Assembly: GCA_938030705.1 (NCBI GenBank) | Contig: CALHIR010000063.1 | Location: forward strand, 1-39,138 | Direction of reading: 5' to 3' | Length of the DNA: 39,138 nucleotides | Source of the DNA: Candidatus Poseidoniaceae archaeon | Lineage (GTDB): Archaea > Thermoplasmatota > Poseidoniia > Poseidoniales > Poseidoniaceae | Part shown: one piece after another, positions 17,382 to 30,666 of the stretch | How positions within the stretch are numbered: the first letter of the stretch is position 1 | Layout: each line of letters opens with the position of its first letter | The notes under the pieces: generated by a model | Databases searched by the model: none | The model's input: the letters and a program-made list of their open reading frames with translations, nothing else | What the model was told of the DNA's origin: nothing | Translations under genes and position numbers: made by a program

Positions 17382-18401
17382 TCAGGCCCCCTGCTTGGAT
17401 GCGGTACTCACGTACGTGATCTCGTAGTCATGGAGTGTTTTGTCCGAACCACGCGTGGCGTCTCGGAAGCGAATCAATCGCTTGGCAGGGCCAGGAACAC
17501 TTCCTTTGACAAGGATGTAGTCTGATTTGATTTCGCCATAGTGGAGGAATCCACCAGCGGGCGTAATGGAGTGGTCTTCGGGGTTGGCGACGCGCAGGAT
17601 GCGCTTGTTGTACTCCGTGCGCTGATGGTAGCCCGTTTGTCCACCCTGTCGGATGGTCTTTCGAACATATCCATCACCGAAGGCACCCATGTTACCGTGT
17701 TGTCGGCGCTTCTTGGAGTTCTTGTGCGATTGGAGTTTACCGCCAAATCGCTTGATGACACCCTGCCAGCCGTAGCCCTTGGTGATGGCGACGATATCGG
17801 TCATGGTGCCTTCTTCAAAGGCGTCGGCAAAGGAATATTCCTCGCCCAGGCGCTCATTGGCCCAGTTGAGTTGGTCGTCCATGGTGCCGCCGGTCAATCC
17901 CATTTCCATCACGTCGGGAACCTTGGAGGGGACGCTGGATAGGGTGTGAGGTTGGGTGGCCACGATGAGGCGAACTTCGCAAAGATCGGCCTGCTGAAGG
18001 TTGGTCATGTGCTTGGCTGCATCGTGTTCCTTTCGCTCAGGAACGCGCTTGAAGAGTTCTGAAAAAGCCTCTGCAATCTTCTCGCCATCGGCCCAAACCT
18101 CTCCACGAGCTTGAATGCCGTAGGGGGTCATTTCGTAGCCACGCACACCGAGAATTCGCATCTTGGGGCATTCAACGACGGTAACAGGAACTCGAATTTC
18201 CTGACCGGCCGAGGTGCTACGGGGGTTCAAATCACGAGCCAGAATGTGGGTCATGCCAGCTTTCCAGCCGGCAAAGCCCTGCACTCGGACTTCGCTCGCA
18301 TCGGTTGTGGGCCACGACTTGACGTGACCAAATGGGCGGTTCGCTCGCTTGCGCGGGCTGAACGCCATTGATCCACGACGTGGGTGGTTTCGCTTTGCCA
18401 T
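17382..18401 (-). CDS. rpl3: 50S ribosomal protein L3 (uL3)
   Basis: First gene of the operon, 339 residues. It begins MAKRNHPRRGSMAFSPRKRA, the standard archaeal L3 start, and has the HKNSKKRRQHGNMGAFGDGY tip region and the GYHQRTEYNKRILRV stretch. The reading frame stays open for 72 more codons upstream without a stop, but those residues do not look like L3. GGAGGA lies seven bases before the ATG at 18401, so the upstream part is treated as leader. Confidence 0.96.
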   Translation of the reverse strand: MAKRNHPRRGSMAFSPRKRANRPFGHVKSWPTTDASEVRVQGFAGWKAGMTHILARDLNPRSTSAGQEIRVPVTVVECPKMRILGVRGYEMTPYGIQARGEVWADGEKIAEAFSELFKRVPERKEHDAAKHMTNLQQADLCEVRLIVATQPHTLSSVPSKVPDVMEMGLTGGTMDDQLNWANERLGEEYSFADAFEEGTMTDIVAITKGYGWQGVIKRFGGKLQSHKNSKKRRQHGNMGAFGDGYVRKTIRQGGQTGYHQRTEYNKRILRVANPEDHSITPAGGFLHYGEIKSDYILVKGSVPGPAKRLIRFRDATRGSDKTLHDYEITYVSTASKQGA

Positions 18402-18750
18402 CTTGGATTCCTCCAGGTTTTCTACAGCGCAGTGGCCCCACCGTTGGGGGGCGTACGAGGGCCCATACAGCGTCGAAGCCGTGACACGGAGCCGCTTTCC
18501 CACGAGCGGGGAAGGCGCCAGTTGGGGTCCTCGGGGGATGGCCCAGTGTGTCTGGCTACTCACCTTTGAGCAACCCTCCGACTTACAACCCGTATATATG
18601 CGGTTCGGTGTGGACAACCGAGGGGTTGCGTGGGACGCTATGGCGATTGAAGGTCTTCAAACATTTCTCCGCTTGAAGGCCTTTTTCTGTTCAACCTTCC
18701 CGTTTCCCCCCCACATCATCCTTTTGAACCCTCGTCGGGAAGTTATTTTC
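18402..18750. other. divergent control region between L3 and hef
   Basis: About 350 bases separate the L3 start (minus) from the preferred hef start (plus). The 190 bases next to L3 are GC-rich and contain short inverted repeats, for example GAGCCGCTTTCCC/GAGCGGGGAAGG around 18487-18516, so the L3 leader could fold. There is one clear TATA-like element, at 18590-18599. Both flanking frames remain open across the region, but neither extension resembles its protein family. No RNA gene was recognised. Confidence 0.5.
18590..18599. promoter_or_regulatory. near-symmetric TATA element between L3 and hef
   Basis: The text CCGTATATATGCGG is almost palindromic and is the only strong TATA-like element in the gap. 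Used leftwards, it would start the ribosomal operon near 18570 with a leader of about 170 bases. Used rightwards, it would start hef near 18622 with a leader of about 130 bases. Orientation cannot be decided from sequence because the flanking bases give no clear BRE on either side. Confidence 0.5.
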
Positions 18751-21360
18751 ATGCCTCACGTTGTTCATCCTCTCTTGAGCGATGGCGTGGAAGCCAGGGG
18801 CTACCAATTGCGTTCGCTCGAACGAATTCTTTCGTTCTCCAGCCTGATGGTCATGCCAACCGGTTTTGGAAAAACGGCCGTTGAATGGATGGCGATGGCG
18901 GAATATCTTCGCAAAGGAAGCTGCAAAATTGTCCTCATCGCCCCAACCACGGGCTTGGTCGACCAGCAGCGGACGATGGCGGTTGAACGCTTGAACCTCG
19001 ACGAGGCATGCATCGTGGCATACACAGGTGAGACCGGGCCCGAAAAGAGAGAGGCCCTGTGGAAACAAGCCACGGTTGTAATGGCCACGCCCCAAGTTAT
19101 TCGCAACGATGCGATGAACGGTATCATCGATTTGACAGAAGTAGATTTGCTGATCTTGGATGAAGCCCACCACGCCACGGGAAACCATGCTTATGCCCAG
19201 GTAGGTAATCTCTACCAGCGCACGAACCCAAACGGCCGAGTGCTCGCCGCCACGGCAAGCCCCGGTTCAACGCTCAGGAACATCAACGAGGTTCGAACCA
19301 ACCTCAACGCCCACAACCTCGATTTGTGCAAGCGGGACGAACCCCTCCTGAAAGAGTACGATGTGGACATGAAGATCCACACCCATGCGGTGGACTTGCC
19401 TCCGTCTTTGGACCTACTTATCGCCCCGCTTCGAACGCATTTCAACGACGAGGTAAAGCATCTTCAGCGGCTTGGTTTCATGCCCACCAAGGAATACATT
19501 GGGACCAACGACATCGAACGTGCCCAACAAAGTGCAAGTCGGGCCATCCAACAACGCGACATGAGAGGGTATGATGCCGCCCGCAGGGTTGCAGACCTGC
19601 GCCGGATTCACATTCTCATCAACCTGATGCAAACGCAAGGAACCGACGTTGCTCAAGCCTTTCTTAACAGGGCAGAAGAAGAAGGGCGAAACGGGAGAAA
19701 AACCAACCGTATGTTGGCGCTACCCGTCGTTCACCAACTGCGGTTGGCCCTCAAAGACGTAGGTGAATTGCACCCGAAATCTTCCATCGTAGAAACTTTG
19801 GTCAAACAAGAAATCGCCGCAAAGCCGGAAGGAAAAGTCTTGATTTTCACCGAATACAGAGATTCCGTTGAGCGCATCGTGGACGTTTTGCAACAGCATG
19901 AAGGGTTGCAGCCAGATGCCTTCATCGGCCAGTCCTCTCGTGGCTCACAGAAGGGAATGACCCAAAAACAACAACTTGCACAACTCAATCGGTTTCGGAG
20001 TGGAGAAATCAACGTCCTCGTCGCCACCTCGGTGGGTGAAGAAGGCCTTGACGTACCCGCGGCAGATTTGGTGGTGCTTTACGAGCCCGTTCCCAGCGCT
20101 GTTCGGGCCATCCAACGACGAGGCCGGACAGCTCGGCAACGGGCCGGTTCAGTTCATGTCCTGATCACCAAAAACACACGCGACGCCTACGTCCATCGTG
20201 CCTCTGAACGCCAGGAAGAAAACATGCATCGACTGATGGTGCGACTCGTGCGTCAGAAGCAACTCAACGAAACTTACGTGGTAAACGACAAGGCACTTGA
20301 GGCCTTCAGCGTCAGAACCGACGTCGAAACGCTCCCTGCCAAGGCCTTCTTGGAATCGGAGTTGAAACGACTTCCACCGGCGAAGGAAGCGGTTCAAAAT
20401 TCTATAGGAAAAGAGACGCAGTCCGGGAAACGAAGCGATAACGTCGCAGCACCTTTACGACCGGACCAAATTCGACCGCAAGCCCAAGCCAGCCTGTTTC
20501 ACTTTAACCAACCTGGCCCCACCACGGCTGAATCGGCCGCCATACGAGAAGGCATGGAAGTGGTGCTGAACGCAGCTGAAGAAGAGGTCAAGGCGCTCAG
20601 TGATGTACGAGGCCGTGGCCAAGTGGTGTTCATCGACCACCGAGAGGCACGCTCCACGCTCCCGAGTTATCTCAACGGTCTGGGTTTCAAGACAACCTTT
20701 ACTCAACTTCCCTATGGCGACTTCCGCTTGTCTGAGCGGGTGTTGATCGAGCGGAAATCGGCCAGGGACCTCCTCGAGTCGGTGAAGTCAGGCCGCCTGC
20801 TCAGTCAATGCCGGAGTTTGGCAGCCAGCGCTCAACGCCCCTTGTTGTTGGTTGAAACGGGCGGTGAAGCACAATACAGCGTGCACCCAAATGCAGTTCT
20901 CGGTGCATTGGCCCACATCACCCTTGAGTTAGGTGTACCCGTCGTGATGGTGAAAGGGCCGCTTGAAGCCGCCCATTTCATCGCTGTCGCTGTGCGTCAA
21001 GAACACGAAGCCCTCGAGCGTTTGCATCAATTTGCAAGGTCTGCGAGCCGTGAACAGGATGATCTTCGGGCGGCCATCTCACGAGCAGGTGGCGAACTTG
21101 ACGCCATCGTTGACCAACCAGAGGCCTCACACCCATGGCTCGACGACCAGCGTGAACACCTGACCCGATGTTATGACCACGCCATGAGGCCACTTGTGGA
21201 ACAGGCACCACATCTTGAGCCCATTCTCATGCATTTTACGCCGCATCTCGGGCGGTTATTTTCAGCCTCCGATGAAGTGCTCGTCCAGAAAACGGGGTGT
21301 ACGGCTGAAGAGGCCAACCAGACCATCGCCTTGCTTCACGGAACGTTCACGAACCAATGA
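18751..21360 (+). CDS. hef: Hef, XPF/FANCM-type helicase-nuclease
   Basis: Hef remodels and cuts stalled replication forks. Numbered from the ATG at 18751 (869 residues), the helicase part has Walker A MPTGFGKTA (35-43), the DEAH box (137-140), a TAS motif (168-170) and motif VI QRRGRT (455-460). The nuclease part has the XPF signature: VFIDHRE, then GD (656-657) and ERKSARD (667-673), so the metal-binding and catalytic residues are intact. The last 70 residues should hold the helix-hairpin-helix region, though it reads as degenerate. The frame is open upstream to 18349, but that overlaps L3. The ribosome site before 18751 is weak (GGGAAG). It is the only large plus-strand gene and stands between two minus-strand blocks. 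Confidence 0.93.
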   Translation: MPHVVHPLLSDGVEARGYQLRSLERILSFSSLMVMPTGFGKTAVEWMAMAEYLRKGSCKIVLIAPTTGLVDQQRTMAVERLNLDEACIVAYTGETGPEKREALWKQATVVMATPQVIRNDAMNGIIDLTEVDLLILDEAHHATGNHAYAQVGNLYQRTNPNGRVLAATASPGSTLRNINEVRTNLNAHNLDLCKRDEPLLKEYDVDMKIHTHAVDLPPSLDLLIAPLRTHFNDEVKHLQRLGFMPTKEYIGTNDIERAQQSASRAIQQRDMRGYDAARRVADLRRIHILINLMQTQGTDVAQAFLNRAEEEGRNGRKTNRMLALPVVHQLRLALKDVGELHPKSSIVETLVKQEIAAKPEGKVLIFTEYRDSVERIVDVLQQHEGLQPDAFIGQSSRGSQKGMTQKQQLAQLNRFRSGEINVLVATSVGEEGLDVPAADLVVLYEPVPSAVRAIQRRGRTARQRAGSVHVLITKNTRDAYVHRASERQEENMHRLMVRLVRQKQLNETYVVNDKALEAFSVRTDVETLPAKAFLESELKRLPPAKEAVQNSIGKETQSGKRSDNVAAPLRPDQIRPQAQASLFHFNQPGPTTAESAAIREGMEVVLNAAEEEVKALSDVRGRGQVVFIDHREARSTLPSYLNGLGFKTTFTQLPYGDFRLSERVLIERKSARDLLESVKSGRLLSQCRSLAASAQRPLLLVETGGEAQYSVHPNAVLGALAHITLELGVPVVMVKGPLEAAHFIAVAVRQEHEALERLHQFARSASREQDDLRAAISRAGGELDAIVDQPEASHPWLDDQREHLTRCYDHAMRPLVEQAPHLEPILMHFTPHLGRLFSASDEVLVQKTGCTAEEANQTIALLHGTFTNQ

Positions 21361-22204
21361 GGCGAACTCGAGTGCGGAGTTGTGCCAGTCGGTCGGGATA
21401 GAAACCGAGGGCGAAGGCCACCAGTTCGGAGAGGTGGCAAACCGGAACCGTGGTGTTCTTTCCACTGACACGTCCAGCCTTGGACTGATAGGAATCGAGG
21501 TTGATGTGGGACATGGTGCAGGCGCTGACCACGAGTTCGGCACCGGATTGGATCGCATCCGAGAGGACGGCGGCCGTCATGGCAAGCGAAGAGTCTTCCA
21601 AAGTCAGCATGGATGTGGAACCGACGCTCATGCACTTGGAATCGTAATCCACGGCTGTCCCTCCGAGCGCTTCGATCAATTGCTCCATGTAGGTGGGCAT
21701 GAACGGGTCATCACCCGCACAAGCACCATCCCTTTGCATGTCAGGGCCGTAGTACGCAGCGATCTTCATCTTCAACGGGTTCTTCACCGCATCACGAATT
21801 TTATCCAACCCGATTTCTTCAACCAGATAATGAAGAAGGTGCCAGGATTGAGTTTCTCCGGTGTATTCAACCTTAGAGGTACGGGCCACAAGGTTGTTCA
21901 CGGTACTTGCGTACACGGGGTCCCTTGCCATGTCTTGAGCCGTGTTGCACATGATGGCATGGCTGGTGGCACAGGTCGTCATGACATCAAGGCCCTTCGA
22001 TTCAGCGAGAGCCAAGTTTCGGGCGACCAAAGCATCTTGCAGTTTCGGCGTGGCCTGCTTGATGACGTTGCCTCCGTCGCTGCTGGCCCGAGGAATTTCA
22101 ACGAGCTGGATGTTTAGCGCCCTGCATAGAGGTTGAATGGTGTCCTCAATTTCTGCGGCTCCTGCTCGGGCCACATTGCCGGGATAATATGCGATTTTTG
22201 CCAT
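21347..22204 (-). CDS. HdrB/SdhE-like CCG-domain protein lacking most cluster cysteines
   Basis: The fold order matches heterodisulfide reductase subunit B and the SdhE subunit of archaeal succinate dehydrogenases: YYPG start, TTCATSHA, then AAYYGPDMQRDG, the KCMSVGS region and VSACTMSH. In working members these spots carry Cys or Cys-Cys pairs that bind non-cubane iron-sulfur clusters. Here, numbered from the second Met (22204), the first is N10, the expected CC pair is S41-S42, C78 is kept but its partner is S81, the second half has P154, C191 followed by M192 instead of CC, and C229 with S232. At most three of ten ligands remain. It starts nine bases after the fusion gene, with GAGGTGAG between, so the two should be made together. 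Its 3' end overlaps the hef end by 14 bases. Confidence 0.85.
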   Translation of the reverse strand: MAKIAYYPGNVARAGAAEIEDTIQPLCRALNIQLVEIPRASSDGGNVIKQATPKLQDALVARNLALAESKGLDVMTTCATSHAIMCNTAQDMARDPVYASTVNNLVARTSKVEYTGETQSWHLLHYLVEEIGLDKIRDAVKNPLKMKIAAYYGPDMQRDGACAGDDPFMPTYMEQLIEALGGTAVDYDSKCMSVGSTSMLTLEDSSLAMTAAVLSDAIQSGAELVVSACTMSHINLDSYQSKAGRVSGKNTTVPVCHLSELVAFALGFYPDRLAQLRTRVRLIGS

Positions 22205-22213
22205 CATCTCACC

Positions 22214-24178
22214 TCAGAACCGTTGGTCAATTTCGTTGAAGAGACTGACTACTTCGTGATAATTCTCAACTCGTCCGTTGAACATTTTTGGAATACGACC
22301 GAGACCGGCCGGGGGAACGAGGAGCGCTTGCAGACCACGGATGGGCGGACCGCCGTTGCGGGTGAAAGCGAGGGCCATGCGAGCAGAGACACCGCTGAAG
22401 ACATTGCTGACCAAGCCCAAGGGCCCGAGGACCTGCCGGTAAAGGGTGGTTTCGTTCACGTTGCCAGACCACTTCACGCTGCGACCGTACCACTTGACGA
22501 GTCGGCCGGATTTCCCAGCGTAACGTGTTTGATTCAACAAGGCGCCTCGTGCTTCATTCAGAGAACGGGCCGCAAGACGGCCGTCCTCACCGTATCGCAT
22601 GAGGCTGGCATGGTCGGCTTCGGACCAAATGCCGTCCTTCTCTTGAAGCGAGTTCATGATGACACGGCGTTGCTTCTCGGAAGTGCGAGGGTCAAGGACC
22701 CGTAGCCATTGTTGGAAGTGAACACCGGGGCCTTCGTAGTGAGGGTCGTGAGGGAGCGTATCAGACATCGATTGAATCAGTTGGAAGGAGAGGACATCAC
22801 CGGCTTGGTGGAGGGCGGTGGCTGCAGCCGAGTCCATCGTACCCATGGCCATGCCGGACGGAAGGCGCTCTCCTTCACGCGGGTCTGCTCGCATCCAAGG
22901 CTCCGCACGGCTGCGGTGGCTTTCGTAGCGAGAGGTATCAACGATGAGGTCACGGATCACAGGATGGCCGGGAAGCGGTTCAATGCGGACGCGTCCACCG
23001 TCTTGAGCCAACGAACCGATTTGAGCGCTGTCGGCGAGAACGATACGACCGTTCACACGCACACCTGTTGTGGGGGTGCCAGCGGTTGTGCCCCTTCGGA
23101 AAGCGAGACTCCCGTCGAGATCCCGTTGCATGGTGATGAGAAGGTCCTGTACCGTGGCGTGTCCGGGAACGGTGCATGTCAAGGTATCCCAGCCGGATTC
23201 AGCGGCCTGTGGGCAATAGCGGAAAATTTCCAGGGTAATGGTCAACTCCGCCTGTTCAATGACACCAGGAGCGAAATCGCCCTCGATCACATCGTCATCA
23301 TCACCGGCGCCGTAGGCTTTCATTTCTTCAAGGAGTTCAACCTGAAGGGTTCCGGATTCGTTGACGCAAGCAAGAAGGGGAAGGGCTTCTTCAACCCAAA
23401 TCTTCCACGGGGGCTCAAAGTCAACATCGCATTCCTGAATGGGGTAGGCTTCGGTCCCACCGAGGGCGGCGAGCTTGTCGTTCCAATCATGGCCTGCCTT
23501 GCAGAACTCGTCGTAGGAGGTGTCGCCGATGGCACAGACAGAGAAGTGAACCGAGCCAAGCGCAGGTCCGTTGGCGTTGATGGCGTTCCACATGGCGTCT
23601 GCGTTGTCAGGCATCTCGCCTTCGCCCCACGTCGAGGTGATGATCATGACGCGCTTCATCGTCGCCAGTTGGGCAGGGTCAAGACCGTCCATGTCCACAA
23701 TTTTGGGTTCCAGTCCATAATTGGCGGCCAATTTTGCCGTCTTCTCAGCAAGGCCAGCAGCGTTGCCGGTTTGGGAACCGAAGAGGATGTTGATGGAACG
23801 GTCGCCGGCAAAGACGGCGTTGAGGGCCTCGGACACGCCGGCGGCAGGGGCAACAGCGGCGGCGGGCGCAGCGGCTTCAACCGCTGCCGGTGCGGCTTCA
23901 ACGGCTTCTTCTGCAGCGCCGTCGCTCACCAGTTCGTACTTGATGACTTCAACAGGACAGGCTTCAGCCGCCTCGATGATAATGTCCCCCAATTCGGTTC
24001 CAAGGGCGCCGACCAGAGGTGAGCCACCGACGTTGCGGTCAAAGACGCCGTCGGTTCGAACCGCCGCCAAAATCATCGATGAATCATCGGTGACCTCGAA
24101 GACCTCGGGACAGATGTCCTGGCAGGCGTCACAGGTGATACAGTCTTCGTCAATCCACACTTTTGCAACTGCTGCCAT
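22214..24178 (-). CDS. ferredoxin-flavodoxin-SdhB-like fusion protein
   Basis: 654 residues in three parts. Residues 1-85 are a single-cluster ferredoxin: C13-x2-C16-x2-C19-x3-C23-P and a remote C74-P. An alanine/proline linker (86-125) leads to a flavodoxin domain (about 128-270) with the FMN phosphate loop SQTGNA, STWGEGEMPDNA and AIGDTSYDEFC, like the FMN domain of P450 reductase or sulfite reductase. Residues 311-535 follow SdhB, the iron-sulfur subunit of succinate dehydrogenase, including LAFRR, VNGR, PLPGHPVIRDLIVD and YEGPG. Yet every cluster cysteine of SdhB is missing: there is no Cys at all after C335. The last 120 residues are unassigned. No NADPH-reductase domain and no SdhA lie nearby. 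The ATG has AAGGGG upstream, and a possible TATA (GATAATAAC, 24241-24250) precedes it. Confidence 0.85.
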   Translation of the reverse strand: MAAVAKVWIDEDCITCDACQDICPEVFEVTDDSSMILAAVRTDGVFDRNVGGSPLVGALGTELGDIIIEAAEACPVEVIKYELVSDGAAEEAVEAAPAAVEAAAPAAAVAPAAGVSEALNAVFAGDRSINILFGSQTGNAAGLAEKTAKLAANYGLEPKIVDMDGLDPAQLATMKRVMIITSTWGEGEMPDNADAMWNAINANGPALGSVHFSVCAIGDTSYDEFCKAGHDWNDKLAALGGTEAYPIQECDVDFEPPWKIWVEEALPLLACVNESGTLQVELLEEMKAYGAGDDDDVIEGDFAPGVIEQAELTITLEIFRYCPQAAESGWDTLTCTVPGHATVQDLLITMQRDLDGSLAFRRGTTAGTPTTGVRVNGRIVLADSAQIGSLAQDGGRVRIEPLPGHPVIRDLIVDTSRYESHRSRAEPWMRADPREGERLPSGMAMGTMDSAAATALHQAGDVLSFQLIQSMSDTLPHDPHYEGPGVHFQQWLRVLDPRTSEKQRRVIMNSLQEKDGIWSEADHASLMRYGEDGRLAARSLNEARGALLNQTRYAGKSGRLVKWYGRSVKWSGNVNETTLYRQVLGPLGLVSNVFSGVSARMALAFTRNGGPPIRGLQALLVPPAGLGRIPKMFNGRVENYHEVVSLFNEIDQRF

Positions 24179-26020: not shown

Positions 26021-29000
26021 TCATGGCTGGTTCTGCTCCAACCATTGCTGGCCGTAGTGCTTCCATTGTTCCATCGTCCAACCGGCTGGCAGACCCCCAT
26101 CTGGCAGTGGAGGCGTCGAGGCCTGTTCCACCGGAGCAGGAGTTGCCGGCGCAGGTGCTGGTGTGGGCATCGAGGCGGGGATGGAGGGCGCTGCGGCGAC
26201 GGCCCCGTAGGTAGCGGAGAGACTGTCCTCGTAACCGTCTTCGCCCCAGTTGGCGTATTCGTCTTCTTCTTCTTCTGTTCGAAGAATGGAGAGGAGAACA
26301 ACCACACCTCCAACGATGACCAAGAGGAACACACCCCACATGGCGATGGCTTCCAGCGGCAGACCGGAGCCTGTATCATCTTCACCGTTGGCACTGTTGC
26401 TGTCCATACGAATCAAGGTGACTTCCAACACGGCGTTGGCGGCGTCGCTCACGGTTTCCGAACGTGCCCAAACGGTCAGATTAACGATCAGTGAGTCTTC
26501 GTTGAGGTTCTTAAGTGTCGTTTCGGTGACGTCAACGGTGATGGTGATTTCTCTGGTCTCACCCGTGGCCAAGTTGAAGTCCTTGTCCAAACGAGCGATA
26601 GAAGTTTGGAACCATGAGTTGGAATCGCTGGTGTCAAGGTCCATAACGACGCGCTGACCCGTCGTGTACTGGTTGACAATACGAACGTTGACCTCATAGT
26701 CACCTTCTTCTGAAATCTCAAGGGGCTGGATGGCGAAGATGCGGAGCCAATCTTGCGAACCGACGAGGTAGGTGGCTTGACCGGAGGCGCTGATGCTGCT
26801 ATCGGCGACGCTGGTGGCGATGACCTGTAAGTTCAAACTGCCCTCTGTCCCTTCGATGAATGAAAATTCAACGGTGACGTTGTAGCTTGCTCCGATGTCA
26901 ATCTCGGGGGTGTTCCCGTCAATGAGGTTGGTGAAGGTAGCGCTCATGCCCACTGGGGCGTTCATCGACATGGCGAAACTGTCGGGGTTATTGCCGTCGT
27001 TGCGGACCTCAAACGACATGGTTTGGGGAAGGTCTCCGGGAATGTAGGATTGACCCGTCTCTTCATCAGAAACGAAGACGGCTGCGGTCTCCAAGATTTC
27101 GATAATGAGTTCCACAGAGTCTGACACGGAAGCATCGTCAACGCTTGTGGCCGTGATGGTCACGGAATAATATCCCGGGCTCAGACCGATGGGCATGGCC
27201 AACTGAACGACCACGGTTGATTCACCGTCCCATGCGTCGAGGACGGGCGATTGGTCGGCGGCCAAGGAGGCTTGCAAACGCCAGTTGCTCTGGCCGATGG
27301 ACAAATTGTACTGTTCATCGTCGTTGCCGAGGTTGAAGAGGCTGATGTAAAGCGACTTTCCGATACCGTTCGCTGCACCACTGAACGTGTTCTCTTCGGC
27401 CACGAGGTCCACTTCTCGTAGGACAGGTACCACGACATTTCGGACCAGAACATCCGTTCCAAACAGCGCCGTGCTGCACGAGGGGCAGGTCGCTCGGAGG
27501 TTGAAGGAAACGGCCCCTGGATTGGCCAATTCGGGCGAGGAGATGTTGAGCACAAGGTCCACGCGCTCGCCTTTGTAGAGCGTGATTGGGTTTTGCTTGA
27601 TGACGCCCGTATCGTTTTGAATGACGCCCTGCCAACCCGAATTTTCGGAGAAGGTCGTGGCGAGGTTGAACGCTGCATCTTTGTTCCCCGTGTTTTGCAA
27701 GCGGAAGTTTACCAGACCATAATCGTCGGGAGCAACCTCGGCGGCGACGAGTGGGACCGTTGAGGTTAAGGCGACACTGAATTGTTCACTCACGGCAAGA
27801 TCCATGCCGATTCGGGCTTTTTCACCGAGTTGAGCGCTGCTTGCGTCGGTGAGCCAGAAGTTCCAGTTTTGTTGCTGAACATCAGCACCGGCAGGCACCG
27901 TCAAGTTGGCCCACATCTCGATGGTATCTCCAGCCCCGAGTGGTGGAATGATCAGGTTCGTGCCGTGGCTGCTGCTGCCTTCAACGTCCATGCGAATGAT
28001 GGGGAAAGGAGCCATCCACGAGTCGTTGGAAACGTTCGTTTGCAGACGAATGGTGGCGGGAGCGTAGCCGTTATTGGTCAGCGTGCAGTAAAGCGAAGCC
28101 ATTTGATTGGGGGCGAGGGTGTAGCCGTTCAGTGGGTTATCGCACGACAGGTCGACCGTGTAGTCGGTGACGCGGCTCACACCAAAGTGAACAAAGTCGT
28201 CGACGTGGAAACCTTCGCTGGCGACGCTGCTGTCGGAAGTGAAGAGCACGCTGAACGTGTAGGAACTACCGCCGAGGAACACTTCTGGATTCGTCAAGTC
28301 GGGAATTTCTTCCCACGAGACTTGTGGGTCCCACGAAATGTTGGTCCACTGCCCAGGAGCGGCGCTTGGATTGCCTTGGGAAATGTCCCACGACACGGAT
28401 TCAAACGGGTCGTTGATGTTACCCGAGCCTCGCCAGAGTTCCATGGAGACCGAATCCCCTGCGGCCATGCTGCCCCATGCCTGAAGGTGGAACTGACTGG
28501 AAACAAATTCATTGGAATAAAACAGAAGCCTGCAGATGCCTACGCCATAGACATTCTGAATCAACCCGGTATCGGGCGTGTCGGTATCGCAGGAATTTGA
28601 AGTCGCAACACGAGCATTCACCAGCCGGGTTGCCTCGGCGTTTGAGGGGTAGTTGCTCCCGGGAGCTGAATGACGCCAATGCTTTGACCCCGAGGCACTT
28701 GACGTGGCTTCGGTTTCCCATGACCCGGCAGCGTAAGCATCGCCGCCGTCCGCAGGGTATTTTCCAGAGATGAAGCCCGGCGCTCCATTTGTCGGGAAGT
28801 CATCCATCTTGTCGGCAGAAACAGCCACCGGCACCACCATTTCTCGCTCGTCGTTGGTGTTCTTGTCGTCGTCAGCGAAGTTGGTGGCGGCTCGGATGAT
28901 CAGGCCACCGGAGAGGTCGTTGGTGGACGTGTTGAGAATGGAGTGAGCGGCGGAAGGCGTCCATTCAAGGAGGTGATTGTAGGATTGACCTCCCGTTAAC

Positions 29001-29347
29001 GGTGTGGTGGTGAAGTCAAAGGATTCCATAACAAACCCAATGGGGTGGACGATGTCAACGGAGACCGGAGAAGCATCACCGATACCAGAGGCACCAAAAC
29101 GCTGGACGCTGATGGTGATCTCGATGGTTTCTTCCATGAAGATGTAATCGACGACGGTTCCGTCGGATTGGACCCATTGCTCGGCAGGAGCGGAGGCGTT
29201 CCCGACCGAGATGGTCTTGACCGTAAAGTCGTCATTGGTACCACCGCGCCCTGAGGCGGCTTCAGCAGGCACGATGAGATTCAAGGCAAGGGTTTGCATC
29301 AAGAGCAGCACAACAATGGTGAAGGGCATCATTCGGCGCATGGACAT
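26021..29347 (-). CDS. giant secreted surface protein with C-terminal anchor and tail motif
   Basis: About 1108 residues with a signal peptide (MSMRRMM followed by a hydrophobic run ending near PAEAAS). A long outer region, rich in Thr, Ser, Asn and Asp, shows repeated beta-sandwich-like segments with [24 protein letters not shown] and [13 protein letters not shown], the pattern of CARDB/NEW3-type archaeal surface repeats. A single membrane helix follows ([20 protein letters not shown]), then an acidic, Pro/Ala-rich cytoplasmic tail ending in [20 protein letters not shown]. The frame can start earlier at TTG 29422, which overlaps the preceding stop as TTGA; ATG 29347 gives a more typical signal peptide, but neither start has a strong ribosome site. 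A role in cell surface structure or attachment is inference. Confidence 0.85.
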
Positions 29348-29418
29348 CAGCAATCTTGCCCAATACGATTGAGCATAAGAAGGTCGCCTTTTGATGGGCT
29401 TCCAGAAGGAGCCGTATC

Positions 29419-30666
29419 TCAAGCATCCTCGCTGCTTTCGAGGTCAAAACCTCGGATGACCGGTTCGTTATAGGAGGTGGGAGACGAGACATCCGGTGCC
29501 GATTCCCGTGCGACCCGATTGGCGAGGGCATCAAAGTCAAGATCGTCAACGGTGGAAGGCGATGGTTCGGGTTGAGGCATCGCAGGCTGCTGTGCTGGGA
29601 CGGGAACCATCACGTGTTGAACAACGGCTGGCGTGTACGACGATACGGGGCGGGTGGCCTTGGATTGGTTCACATCGGCAGCCAACCGGTCGATACCGGA
29701 AGAAAGCATGTCCAACTGCTCTTGTGTGTCGTCCACCGCCCCCTTCTTTCCGGGCTTCATCCATGCGGGTGGGGTTCCGGCACCACCTCCGAGAACAGCC
29801 AAGGTGGTGAAGGCCGCCATGGGCATAACGGCCAACGCCGTCAGGAGGTTAAGGAACGATGTTTCGGGCGAGGAACTGGCGGAGATTAGTGATTCAAACA
29901 ATTGCTTTTCAAAAGCGATGTTCAATGCAATATCCTCTCCGAGCGCCCGCTGGACGATGTAGGTTGATAATTGGCCCATGGACCACAGCAAGAAGATAGG
30001 AAAGGCCCAGGAAATTCGCAAGGTGTTGCCGAGAAATTTTCTGCCCAACGAGGCCAATGTGATGTAGCGGCGAGCAAAACTTGGAAAGACCCGAATGGAG
30101 ACATAAAGGCACATTCCGTACAGCAAAAGTGCCAATTCCAACTGACGGTTTTGATGAACAACACCTTCTGGAAACATCAACACCAAGGAAAGAGGGATCG
30201 TGGCCAGCAAGACTTGGAACGGGATGGCGAGAAGCACAAGGGAGCCACGAATGGTCCAGAGGGCATGACCGGCTTCGAAGCGCTCGTGGACCAGGAGGGA
30301 AAGGCGACCGTGGGCCGATGTGGCGTACTTTTGTCGGGCCGAAAAACGATGGGCGCTGCTGCCCTGATGACGAGTGAGGCCAAGCGCCAAGCGCCATCCA
30401 CCCGATTCAATAACTCGGAGGGGCGTGAAACCACCCATCCCAAGAGCCAGCAGCAATGCCAACATTCCGTAGAAAAGCGACGCCATCCCAATCCAAGGAA
30501 TCATGTCCACTTCAATGCTAAGACGAAAATCCCCCCCCTGAGCGGTAAACACCAACAGATAGGTCAACGCAAACGCTGCCATGGGGGTCAGGAAAATTTG
30601 GCCGAGCAATTGCCCTGTCAAGCCGACACGGGCAACCAACGAACCGACAGCGCGGCGGCTTTCCAT
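29419..30666 (-). CDS. multi-pass membrane protein of unknown function
   Basis: 415 residues from the ATG at 30666, which has GGTGG nine bases upstream; the open frame extends further but would overlap the gene above. About six to seven hydrophobic segments can be seen, the first near residues 20-42 and 52-76, others around 135-160, 170-190, 215-235 and 265-285. The last 130 residues are hydrophilic, with Pro/Gln-rich stretches and an acidic end, probably cytoplasmic. I do not recognise the family. The stop overlaps or nearly touches the start of the giant surface protein, so the two are likely expressed together and may form an envelope complex (inference). Confidence 0.75.
   Translation of the reverse strand: MESRRAVGSLVARVGLTGQLLGQIFLTPMAAFALTYLLVFTAQGGDFRLSIEVDMIPWIGMASLFYGMLALLLALGMGGFTPLRVIESGGWRLALGLTRHQGSSAHRFSARQKYATSAHGRLSLLVHERFEAGHALWTIRGSLVLLAIPFQVLLATIPLSLVLMFPEGVVHQNRQLELALLLYGMCLYVSIRVFPSFARRYITLASLGRKFLGNTLRISWAFPIFLLWSMGQLSTYIVQRALGEDIALNIAFEKQLFESLISASSSPETSFLNLLTALAVMPMAAFTTLAVLGGGAGTPPAWMKPGKKGAVDDTQEQLDMLSSGIDRLAADVNQSKATRPVSSYTPAVVQHVMVPVPAQQPAMPQPEPSPSTVDDLDFDALANRVARESAPDVSSPTSYNEPVIRGFDLESSEDA

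What the first reader, a model, noticed from the sequence alone, without database searches (positions are those of the whole stretch)
22214..24178. Ferredoxin-flavodoxin joined to an SdhB domain that has lost all its cluster cysteines
Seen: a ferredoxin with a full cysteine set and a flavodoxin with its FMN loops, followed by a region that keeps SdhB landmarks (FRR, VNGR, PLPGHPVIRDLIVD, YEGPG) but has no cysteine after residue 335. Known: SdhB normally carries 2Fe-2S, 4Fe-4S and 3Fe-4S clusters through about eleven cysteines. Inference: the SdhB fold has been kept as a structural or docking surface while electrons pass only between the ferredoxin and FMN parts. I know of no described protein with this architecture.
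Basis: partly seen in the sequence, partly recalled or inferred. Interest (0 to 1): 0.85.

Follow-up and report, generated by a model that had tools for sequence, protein, structure and literature searches.

The report
Iron-sulfur-free relic of respiratory complex II
Marine Group II archaea carry a conserved pair of proteins that look like two subunits of a respiratory enzyme stripped of nearly all the cysteines that hold its iron-sulfur clusters, one of them fused to a ferredoxin and a flavin carrier; the pair is under selection, but its reaction is unknown.

Summary
ORF 22214-24178(-), 654 aa, is a [4Fe-4S] ferredoxin, a CysJ-type FMN domain and a two-domain SdhB homologue whose cluster cysteines are gone. 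It is not decay or misassembly: in 134 distinct homologues only 4 of 1605 filled cells at the 12 SdhB cluster-cysteine columns are Cys, measurable dN/dS is 0.008-0.156, and thermosome>fusion>partner>Hef synteny is kept across order Poseidoniales where contigs allow. Cysteine-bearing counterparts in the phylum lie in sdhA-sdhB-sdhE order. I read the pair as B and E subunits of an E-type succinate dehydrogenase that lost SdhA and the cluster wire and acquired tethered Fd/FMN carriers; the 21 Fld-Fld members have no recognisable iron site left. Best mechanism: a cluster-free scaffold on which mobile carriers pass electrons to an external partner or a thiol pocket. Substrate unknown. The locus is in print under misleading names (PMC6741140); my searches found no description of the architecture or cluster loss.

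The parts
23924..24178 (-). Ferredoxin module, residues 1-85; C13-x2-C16-x2-C19 ... C74, a single [4Fe-4S] site (C23 extra and variable)
   Evidence: Pfam Fer4_13 5.5e-10; 103 of 104 distinct rows with an Fd domain keep CxxCxxC..CP; C23 variable
23804..23923 (-). Ala/Pro-rich linker, residues 86-125
   Evidence: sequence; pLDDT below 50 over 82-114; the least conserved region in the two most distant comparisons, L016 and L026
23354..23803 (-). FMN-flavodoxin module of CysJ/CPR type, residues 126-275; loops SQTGNA 135-140, STWGEGEMPDNA 182-193, GDTSYDEFC 218-226
   Evidence: Pfam 1.4e-25; TIGR01931 cysJ 9.2e-35 over this domain; 1ykg TMt 0.92; all three loop patterns in 103 of 103 rows with Fd and Fld. 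That these are the FMN loops is recalled
23249..23353 (-). Second linker, residues 276-310
   Evidence: pLDDT below 50 over 292-308
22904..23248 (-). SdhB N-domain (2Fe-2S fold) without its four cysteines, residues 311-425
   Evidence: Fer2_3 6.7e-13; columns 364,368,371,383 are Cys in the 10 E-type outgroup rows and not here
22529..22903 (-). SdhB C-domain (two further clusters) without its eight cysteines, residues 426-550; new invariants S472-D473 and E520-x-D522
22217..22528 (-). C-terminal tail, residues 551-654, E-type SdhB tail plus a conserved insert (R600-G609 and around)
   Evidence: alignment with f6 SdhB; 134-row conservation
21347..22207 (-). Partner: HdrB/SdhE-like subunit, 286 aa, CCG-motif cysteines lost except C79 and C230
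21971..21973 (-). Partner C79, first Cys of the first CxxC, kept in 131 of 131 distinct rows
21518..21520 (-). Partner C230, first Cys of the second CxxC, kept in 130 of 131 distinct rows (the other is X)
22760..22765 (-). S472-D473, replacing a Cys-Pro, 134 of 134 rows
22613..22621 (-). E520-x-D522, E520 replacing a cysteine, both invariant in 134 of 134 rows; that 472 and 520 belong to the same (third) cluster is recalled from SdhB structures

Best explanation
The two genes are the descendants of the B and E subunits of an E-type (sdhABE) succinate dehydrogenase. In the stem of Poseidoniales SdhA was lost from this locus, all SdhB clusters and the second HdrB-type cluster were lost, and a ferredoxin plus a CysJ-type FMN domain became fused in front of SdhB on flexible linkers. 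Later most lineages lost the remaining CCG cluster site too, and some replaced the ferredoxin by a second flavodoxin. (Shown: homology, gene order, cysteine loss, selection, carrier variation. Inferred: the order of events and everything that follows.) Mechanism proposed: the fixed wire of Fe-S clusters has been replaced by mobile tethered carriers. Fd and/or FMN arms pick up electrons from cytosolic donors and swing to a site organised by the cluster-free SdhB/HdrB-like scaffold, either a docked partner protein or the old HdrB cavity, where one thiol from each half (C79, C230) is kept. The selective advantage would be saving iron and avoiding oxygen-labile clusters in the surface ocean.
For: Fold and homology. 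Twelve SdhB cluster columns empty in 134 distinct rows (4 Cys of 1605 filled cells) against all-Cys in 8 f6 and 2 f27 rows. The 8 f6 and 3 f27 loci have SdhA directly upstream and the CCG subunit directly downstream. Ghost profile scores: f6 SdhB 54.6-78.5 bits, f27 46.6-48.7, canonical Poseidoniales SdhB 31.7 and 35.4. The own genome keeps a separate canonical SdhA-SdhB with 11 of the 12 cysteines. Synteny, purifying selection. CCG states: both motifs intact in 17 of 18 outgroup rows (L195 has CCCCG in each), first intact and second lost in 7 basal rows, both lost in the other 124. Carriers in 135 distinct rows: Fd-Fld 99, Fd-Fd-Fld 4, Fld-Fld 21, Fld 10, Fd 1; the 7 basal rows are all Fd-Fld and the 21 Fld-Fld rows all have both CCG motifs lost. 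Low-pLDDT linkers.
Against: No donor, acceptor or substrate is identified and nothing biochemical is known. One member (L130, on a 98-kb contig) has Fd but no Fld in the frame, and several have Fld but no Fd, so neither carrier is indispensable. C79 and C230 might be kept for packing only; I had no coordinates to measure their distance. The cysteines that bridge the catalytic iron in HdrB (81 and 234, PMC13083937 passages) correspond to the second Cys of each CxxC and are lost. Iron saving is inference: most members keep one [4Fe-4S] ferredoxin and the genome keeps other Fe-S enzymes. The partner gene tree and the flanking-gene tree disagree on how often the first CCG motif was lost. The ghost SdhB sits on a long branch and the SdhB tree carries a long-branch warning, and the partner tree does not decide between SdhE-type and HdrB-type neighbours, so descent from an f6-type operon rests on score and gene order. 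In one search, 17 f1/f2 genomes gave only weak matches and 11 gave none.
Confidence: 0.5

Rival explanations
1. Pure scaffold: the SdhB/HdrB-like pair has no chemistry of its own and only holds ferredoxin and flavodoxin near another enzyme. C79 and C230 are packing residues, and the old cluster cavities are filled with hydrophobic side chains and a salt-bridge network (new invariant D473, E520, D522 against new near-invariant R434, R493, R528).
For: Cluster columns 462, 468 and 526 are filled mainly by V/I/F, L/I/V and I/L/V, and 465 by Y/F in 72 of 134 rows. New conserved acids (134 of 134) and arginines (134, 132 and 133 of 134) occur together in the C-domain and not in the outgroup rows. 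Carriers are exchangeable.
Against: The partner keeps pocket residues shared with the outgroups (Y153, D166, P171, D238, Q241) and has new S194, S233 and E261, more than plain packing seems to need. Salt bridges and cavity were not seen in a structure.
Confidence: 0.3
2. Thiol chemistry: C79 and C230 face each other across the former HdrB cavity and form a redox-active dithiol/disulfide, making the pair a ferredoxin/flavodoxin-dependent disulfide reductase (or oxidase).
For: C79 in 131 of 131 and C230 in 130 of 131 distinct rows while their motif partners vanish. They align with the first Cys of each CxxC of HdrB, and HdrB is a disulfide reductase (PMC13083937 passages). An electron supply is fused to the SdhB half.
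Against: Distance not measured. No disulfide substrate suggested by my calls. In the 7 basal members C79 lies in an intact 5-Cys motif and would be a cluster ligand.
Confidence: 0.15
3. Alternative metal site: S472-D473 with E520-x-D522 binds a mononuclear metal or a substrate where the third cluster used to be.
For: All four residues invariant in 134 of 134 rows and none present in the 10 outgroup rows. Residues 472 and 520 replace cysteines which, recalled from SdhB structures, ligate the same cluster.
Against: No structural model of enough quality; salt bridges explain the same pattern.
Confidence: 0.07
4. Decayed or misassembled copy.
For: The loss itself; and 28 of at least 271 f1/f2 genomes gave a weak match or none, though these are incomplete assemblies.
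Against: dN/dS 0.008-0.156 across regions, conserved synteny, E below 1e-30 in 243 of 292 class genomes (my count from the listing), intact frames in many assemblies including a single-contig genome (G060, L215).
Confidence: 0.01

Closest known systems
E-type ('non-classical') succinate dehydrogenase / 8-methylmenaquinol:fumarate reductase SdhABE (PMC2680327, passages seen)
   Same: SdhB two-domain fold with a C-terminal tail, followed directly by an HdrB-like SdhE; partner matches NF042965 MFR SdhE at 1.5e-33, below its cut-off
   Different: No SdhA at the locus, no SdhB cluster cysteines, SdhE ten-cysteine motif reduced to two cysteines, Fd and FMN modules fused in front
Heterodisulfide reductase HdrB (5odc_B, 8rvu_B)
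   Same: Fold (TM 0.87, 26-27% identity), TIGR03288 at 7.2e-39
   Different: Both catalytic bridging cysteines and most ligands lost; score (133.8 bits) far below the curated cut-off (345)
TfrB (thiol:fumarate reductase B; SdhB plus HdrB in one chain; architecture recalled)
   Same: SdhB part followed by an HdrB part in the same order; NF004898 at 2.3e-8
   Different: Split in two genes, cluster-free, no TfrA at the locus
CysJ FMN domain / diflavin reductases
   Same: FMN domain fold and loops; 54% identity to L228 and 58% to L231, long frames of other Poseidoniales, of which only L228 was confirmed by Pfam as FMN-FAD-NAD
   Different: No FAD or NADPH domain here
Mycobacterial EtfD (PMC13083937, passages seen)
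   Same: Precedent for altered cysteines in a CCG pair, which its authors say may be adaptation to aerobic conditions
   Different: EtfD keeps clusters in both CCG domains

Membership tests
E-type succinate dehydrogenase (SdhABE) | SdhA encoded with SdhB and SdhE | tested here: not met
   Upstream gene is the thermosome in conserved synteny. Searching the own genome (about 90% complete) for the SdhA C-terminal domain gave three places; the clear SdhA sits with canonical SdhB on contig C3, the others are NadB-like or divergent
E-type succinate dehydrogenase (SdhABE) | SdhB cluster cysteines | tested here: not met
   0 of 12 in the window; 4 of 1605 filled cells in 134 rows
E-type succinate dehydrogenase (SdhABE) | SdhE ten-cysteine motif (two CCG motifs) | tested here: not met
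   C79 and C230 only in the window protein; 7 basal rows keep the first motif
E-type succinate dehydrogenase (SdhABE) | SdhB fold followed by HdrB/SdhE-like fold | tested here: met
   (SdhB model of moderate confidence)
HdrB (heterodisulfide reductase B) | Overall fold | tested here: met
   TM 0.87 to 5odc_B and 8rvu_B
HdrB (heterodisulfide reductase B) | Two noncubane [4Fe-4S] sites and catalytic bridging Cys | tested here: not met
   positions 82 and 233 are Ser in the window; motifs lost
[4Fe-4S] ferredoxin module | CxxCxxC...CP ligand set | tested here: met
   window C13, C16, C19, C74; 103 of 104 rows with an Fd domain
CysJ-type FMN domain | Flavodoxin fold and FMN loops | tested here: met
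CysJ-type FMN domain | Bound FMN | not testable with these tools
   needs purified protein
Complex of fusion and partner | Physical interaction | not testable with these tools
   Only gene adjacency; one member (L129) encodes both in one open frame, with the fusion's tail shortened, which may be an assembly effect

The most novel reading that the evidence does not exclude
A respiratory complex has been rebuilt without its electron wire: evolution removed about five Fe-S clusters from the B and E subunits of an E-type complex II, stabilised the empty folds by new cores, and substituted tethered swinging FMN/ferredoxin arms that feed a two-thiol active site in the old HdrB cavity. In the Fld-Fld lineages this gives an enzyme of complex II ancestry with no recognisable iron site.
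Probability: 0.15. Interest if true: 0.92.

Novelty: new variant of a known kind. Interest (0 to 1): 0.74.

Why it matters
Iron-sulfur folds such as SdhB are generally thought to need their clusters to be stable (general knowledge, not from a call), so an order-wide family in which both redox subunits of a complex II lineage kept their folds and lost their clusters is a natural experiment in how a cluster core can be replaced by protein. Intermediate states survive in living relatives. The gene is widespread in one of the most common archaeal groups of the surface ocean, sits beside the thermosome and ribosomal genes, and carries names in print (a succinate dehydrogenase cytochrome b subunit and a sulfite reductase flavoprotein, PMC6741140) that could mislead metabolic models.

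Tried and rejected
Rejected: decay or misassembly. Rejected: the apparent fusion of both genes in L090, where the stop codon holds an N. Not resolved: number of losses of the first CCG motif; the partner tree gives one starred branch of 57 rows, while the thermosome+Hef tree (35 loci) scatters the intact rows over both families, so parallel loss or homologous replacement is open. Weak Foldseek similarity of the partner to Asp/Glu racemases (E 2.5e-5, TM 0.37), which also use one Cys per half (recalled), was noted and not pursued. The own genome's other proteins matching the SdhA C-terminal domain (NadB-like on C10, a divergent protein on C25) are not at this locus; I did not test a link further. 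Weak points: the fusion's structure model is poor in the tail, and no coordinates were available for the C79-C230 distance. Corrected on recheck: of the ten Fld-only rows five are cut at the 5' edge of the locus and L027 comes from a genome where the match is split over two frames, leaving L124, L128, L151 and L216; G048 (L180, cut in my locus) has a 551-aa frame. Literature searches without the architecture: (an open-access library only); passages of PMC11237513 and PMC13096325 gave nothing on it. No scan of the metagenome or viral collections, and one scan of the genome collection (98 relatives, best 80 kept); outside the phylum only that scan bears on distribution.

Full report
What is there. 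The reported ORF is present as described: 654 aa, eleven cysteines, the last at 335. It reads Fd (1-85), Ala/Pro linker, CysJ-type FMN domain (126-275), linker, and an SdhB homologue (311 to the end). Pfam finds Fer4_13, Flavodoxin_1 and Fer2_3; NCBIfam SdhB models extend to residue 519, into the second SdhB domain, below their cut-offs; a profile of the C-terminal part finds SdhB chains in the PDB at E 1.1e-14 and weaker (24 sequences); Foldseek on the AlphaFold model ranks SdhB/FrdB chains 1-19. The model is only moderate (pLDDT 61.6) and poor in residues 556-654.

The missed half. Six bases downstream lies 21347-22207(-), 286 aa. Its model is good (pLDDT 89.4) and is HdrB (TM 0.87 to 5odc_B and 8rvu_B; PDB profile E 3.9e-54; NCBIfam HdrB 7.2e-39 and SdhE of methylmenaquinol:fumarate reductase 1.5e-33, both below cut-off). 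Of the ten CCG-motif cysteines only the first Cys of each CxxC remains, C79 and C230; the others read N11, S43, D44, S82, P155, S194, V195 and S233. C79 is kept in 131 of 131 distinct rows and C230 in 130 of 131, the other being X.

Distribution. In 59 relatives the full protein gives a match in 57; some matches are only partial or flavodoxin-only, for example in G005. In 292 genomes of the class, 264 match the SdhB part. By my reading of the listing 243 of these are below 1e-30, all in families f1 and f2; 17 f1/f2 genomes have only weaker matches (presumably canonical SdhB or fragments) and 11 listed f1/f2 genomes have none, in assemblies that are mostly 63-90% complete. The 13 listed genomes of family f3 show four weak matches and nine misses; 8 further misses are not listed. 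The one scan of the genome collection found 98 relatives and returned the best 80, labelled Poseidonia, Poseidoniales, Euryarchaeota or Thermoplasmatota except L053, labelled Rhodobiaceae, which clusters with a Poseidoniales row and is probably misbinned. The order thermosome > fusion > HdrB-like > Hef (convergent) > L3 is constant where the contig or fetched stretch allows; three odd orders in my table (L090, L129, L149) come from merged or long open frames. In the loci the partner follows in 106 of 110; the four without it (L025, L030, L052, L061) end inside, at or about 200 bases past the fusion gene. Loci from the two collections overlap, so these counts are not independent.

Cluster loss. 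I aligned 134 distinct ghosts with eight E-type SdhB proteins of family f6, two of f27, and the canonical SdhB of the own genome. Twelve columns are Cys in all ten E-type rows and eleven of twelve in the canonical one. The ghosts hold Cys in 4 of 1605 filled cells. Two replacements are invariant: Cys to S472 and Cys to E520; D473 and D522 are new invariants beside them. dN/dS was computed against seven relatives; six gave values, 0.008-0.156 (SdhB N- and C-domain 0.013-0.106), and L026 was saturated throughout, as were several regions in others.

Origin. In the eight f6 loci and three f27 loci SdhA lies directly upstream of SdhB and the CCG subunit directly downstream, that is sdhABE, the E-type complex II described for Wolinella (PMC2680327, passages seen). 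The ghost profile scores these SdhB proteins higher than canonical Poseidoniales SdhB. The own genome has a separate canonical SdhA-SdhB, in line with the statement that MGII have canonical complex II (PMC6336850, passages seen). I infer that a canonical enzyme made the E-type one dispensable and that its B and E subunits were reused. The ghost branch is long, the SdhB tree carries a long-branch warning, and the partner tree does not decide between SdhE-type and HdrB-type neighbours, so this step rests on score and gene order.

Steps of loss. Of 18 outgroup partner rows 17 have both CCG motifs complete (L195 has Gly at the last position of each). Seven Poseidoniales rows (L028, L207, L209, L113, L119, L121, L123) keep the first motif and have lost the second except C230; the other 124 distinct rows have lost both except C79 and C230, with C44 also kept in the f2 double losers. 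The partner tree puts one starred branch above the double losers; the tree of flanking genes does not, so loss may have happened more than once.

Carriers. Over 135 distinct rows: Fd-Fld 99, Fd-Fd-Fld 4 (possibly split hits), Fld-Fld 21, Fld 10, Fd only 1. Five of the ten Fld-only rows are cut at the locus edge; L124, L128, L151 and L216 are whole frames. All 103 rows with Fd and Fld keep three FMN loop patterns, 20 of 21 first and 21 of 21 second domains of Fld-Fld rows do, and 103 of 104 Fd domains keep CxxCxxC..CP. The seven basal rows are all Fd-Fld; all 21 Fld-Fld rows have partners with both CCG motifs lost, so in them no known iron site is left in the pair.

Mechanism. Shown: two cluster-free folds of an electron-transfer couple under constraint, with at least one carrier in front in each of the 135 rows. 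Inferred: the carriers replace the buried wire and swing on their linkers (low pLDDT), as FMN domains do in diflavin reductases (general knowledge). Whether the acceptor is a docked protein or the former HdrB cavity with C79 and C230 is open. In HdrB the bridging cysteines 81 and 234 sit on the catalytic irons (PMC13083937, passages seen), and by alignment these are among the lost ones, so heterodisulfide chemistry of the known kind is very unlikely. Saving iron and avoiding oxygen damage is the simplest selective reason, by analogy with the ferredoxin-to-flavodoxin exchange (PMC5322553, start of abstract in the listing only) and with the remark on aerobic adaptation by the authors of the EtfD paper.

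In print. [quoted passage not shown] That is this locus by gene order. The section gives no further analysis. My searches found no description of the architecture or of the cluster loss.

Noticed in passing
L227 (G063:C10:19000-25000): In a genome of family f3 (same class, not the same order; perhaps MGIII) a flavodoxin about 47% identical to the window's FMN domain is fused to a 2x[4Fe-4S] domain and lies in a row with a CCG protein, a Fer4 protein and a cytochrome b: another flavodoxin/CCG link.
   Followed up: partly
L228 (G090), L229, L230: Frames of 603-619 aa in some Poseidoniales, with an FMN domain 39-54% identical to that of the fusion; L228 is a diflavin reductase by Pfam, the others were not scanned. 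A possible source of the module.
   Followed up: partly
L130 (G044:C9): The one distinct row whose frame has ferredoxin plus SdhB part but no flavodoxin domain.
   Followed up: no
window 18349-21360: Hef-like DEAD helicase plus ERCC4 nuclease frame on the + strand, convergent with the partner gene and overlapping its 3' end by 14 bases.
   Followed up: no
window 26021-29422: 1133-aa ORF upstream of the thermosome, conserved in synteny but without any Pfam match at E 0.01.
   Followed up: no
L053: Contig labelled Rhodobiaceae that carries the Poseidoniales locus; it groups with a Poseidoniales row in the partner tree, so probably a misbinned contig.
   Followed up: partly
G000:C25:43354 (L200): SdhA-related protein of 560 aa, divergent, function unclear.
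   Followed up: no
window 21347-22207 (model m2a08aca20786): The HdrB-like fold gives weak Foldseek matches to Asp/Glu racemases (E 2.5e-5, TM 0.37), a family that also uses one Cys per half (recalled).
   Followed up: no
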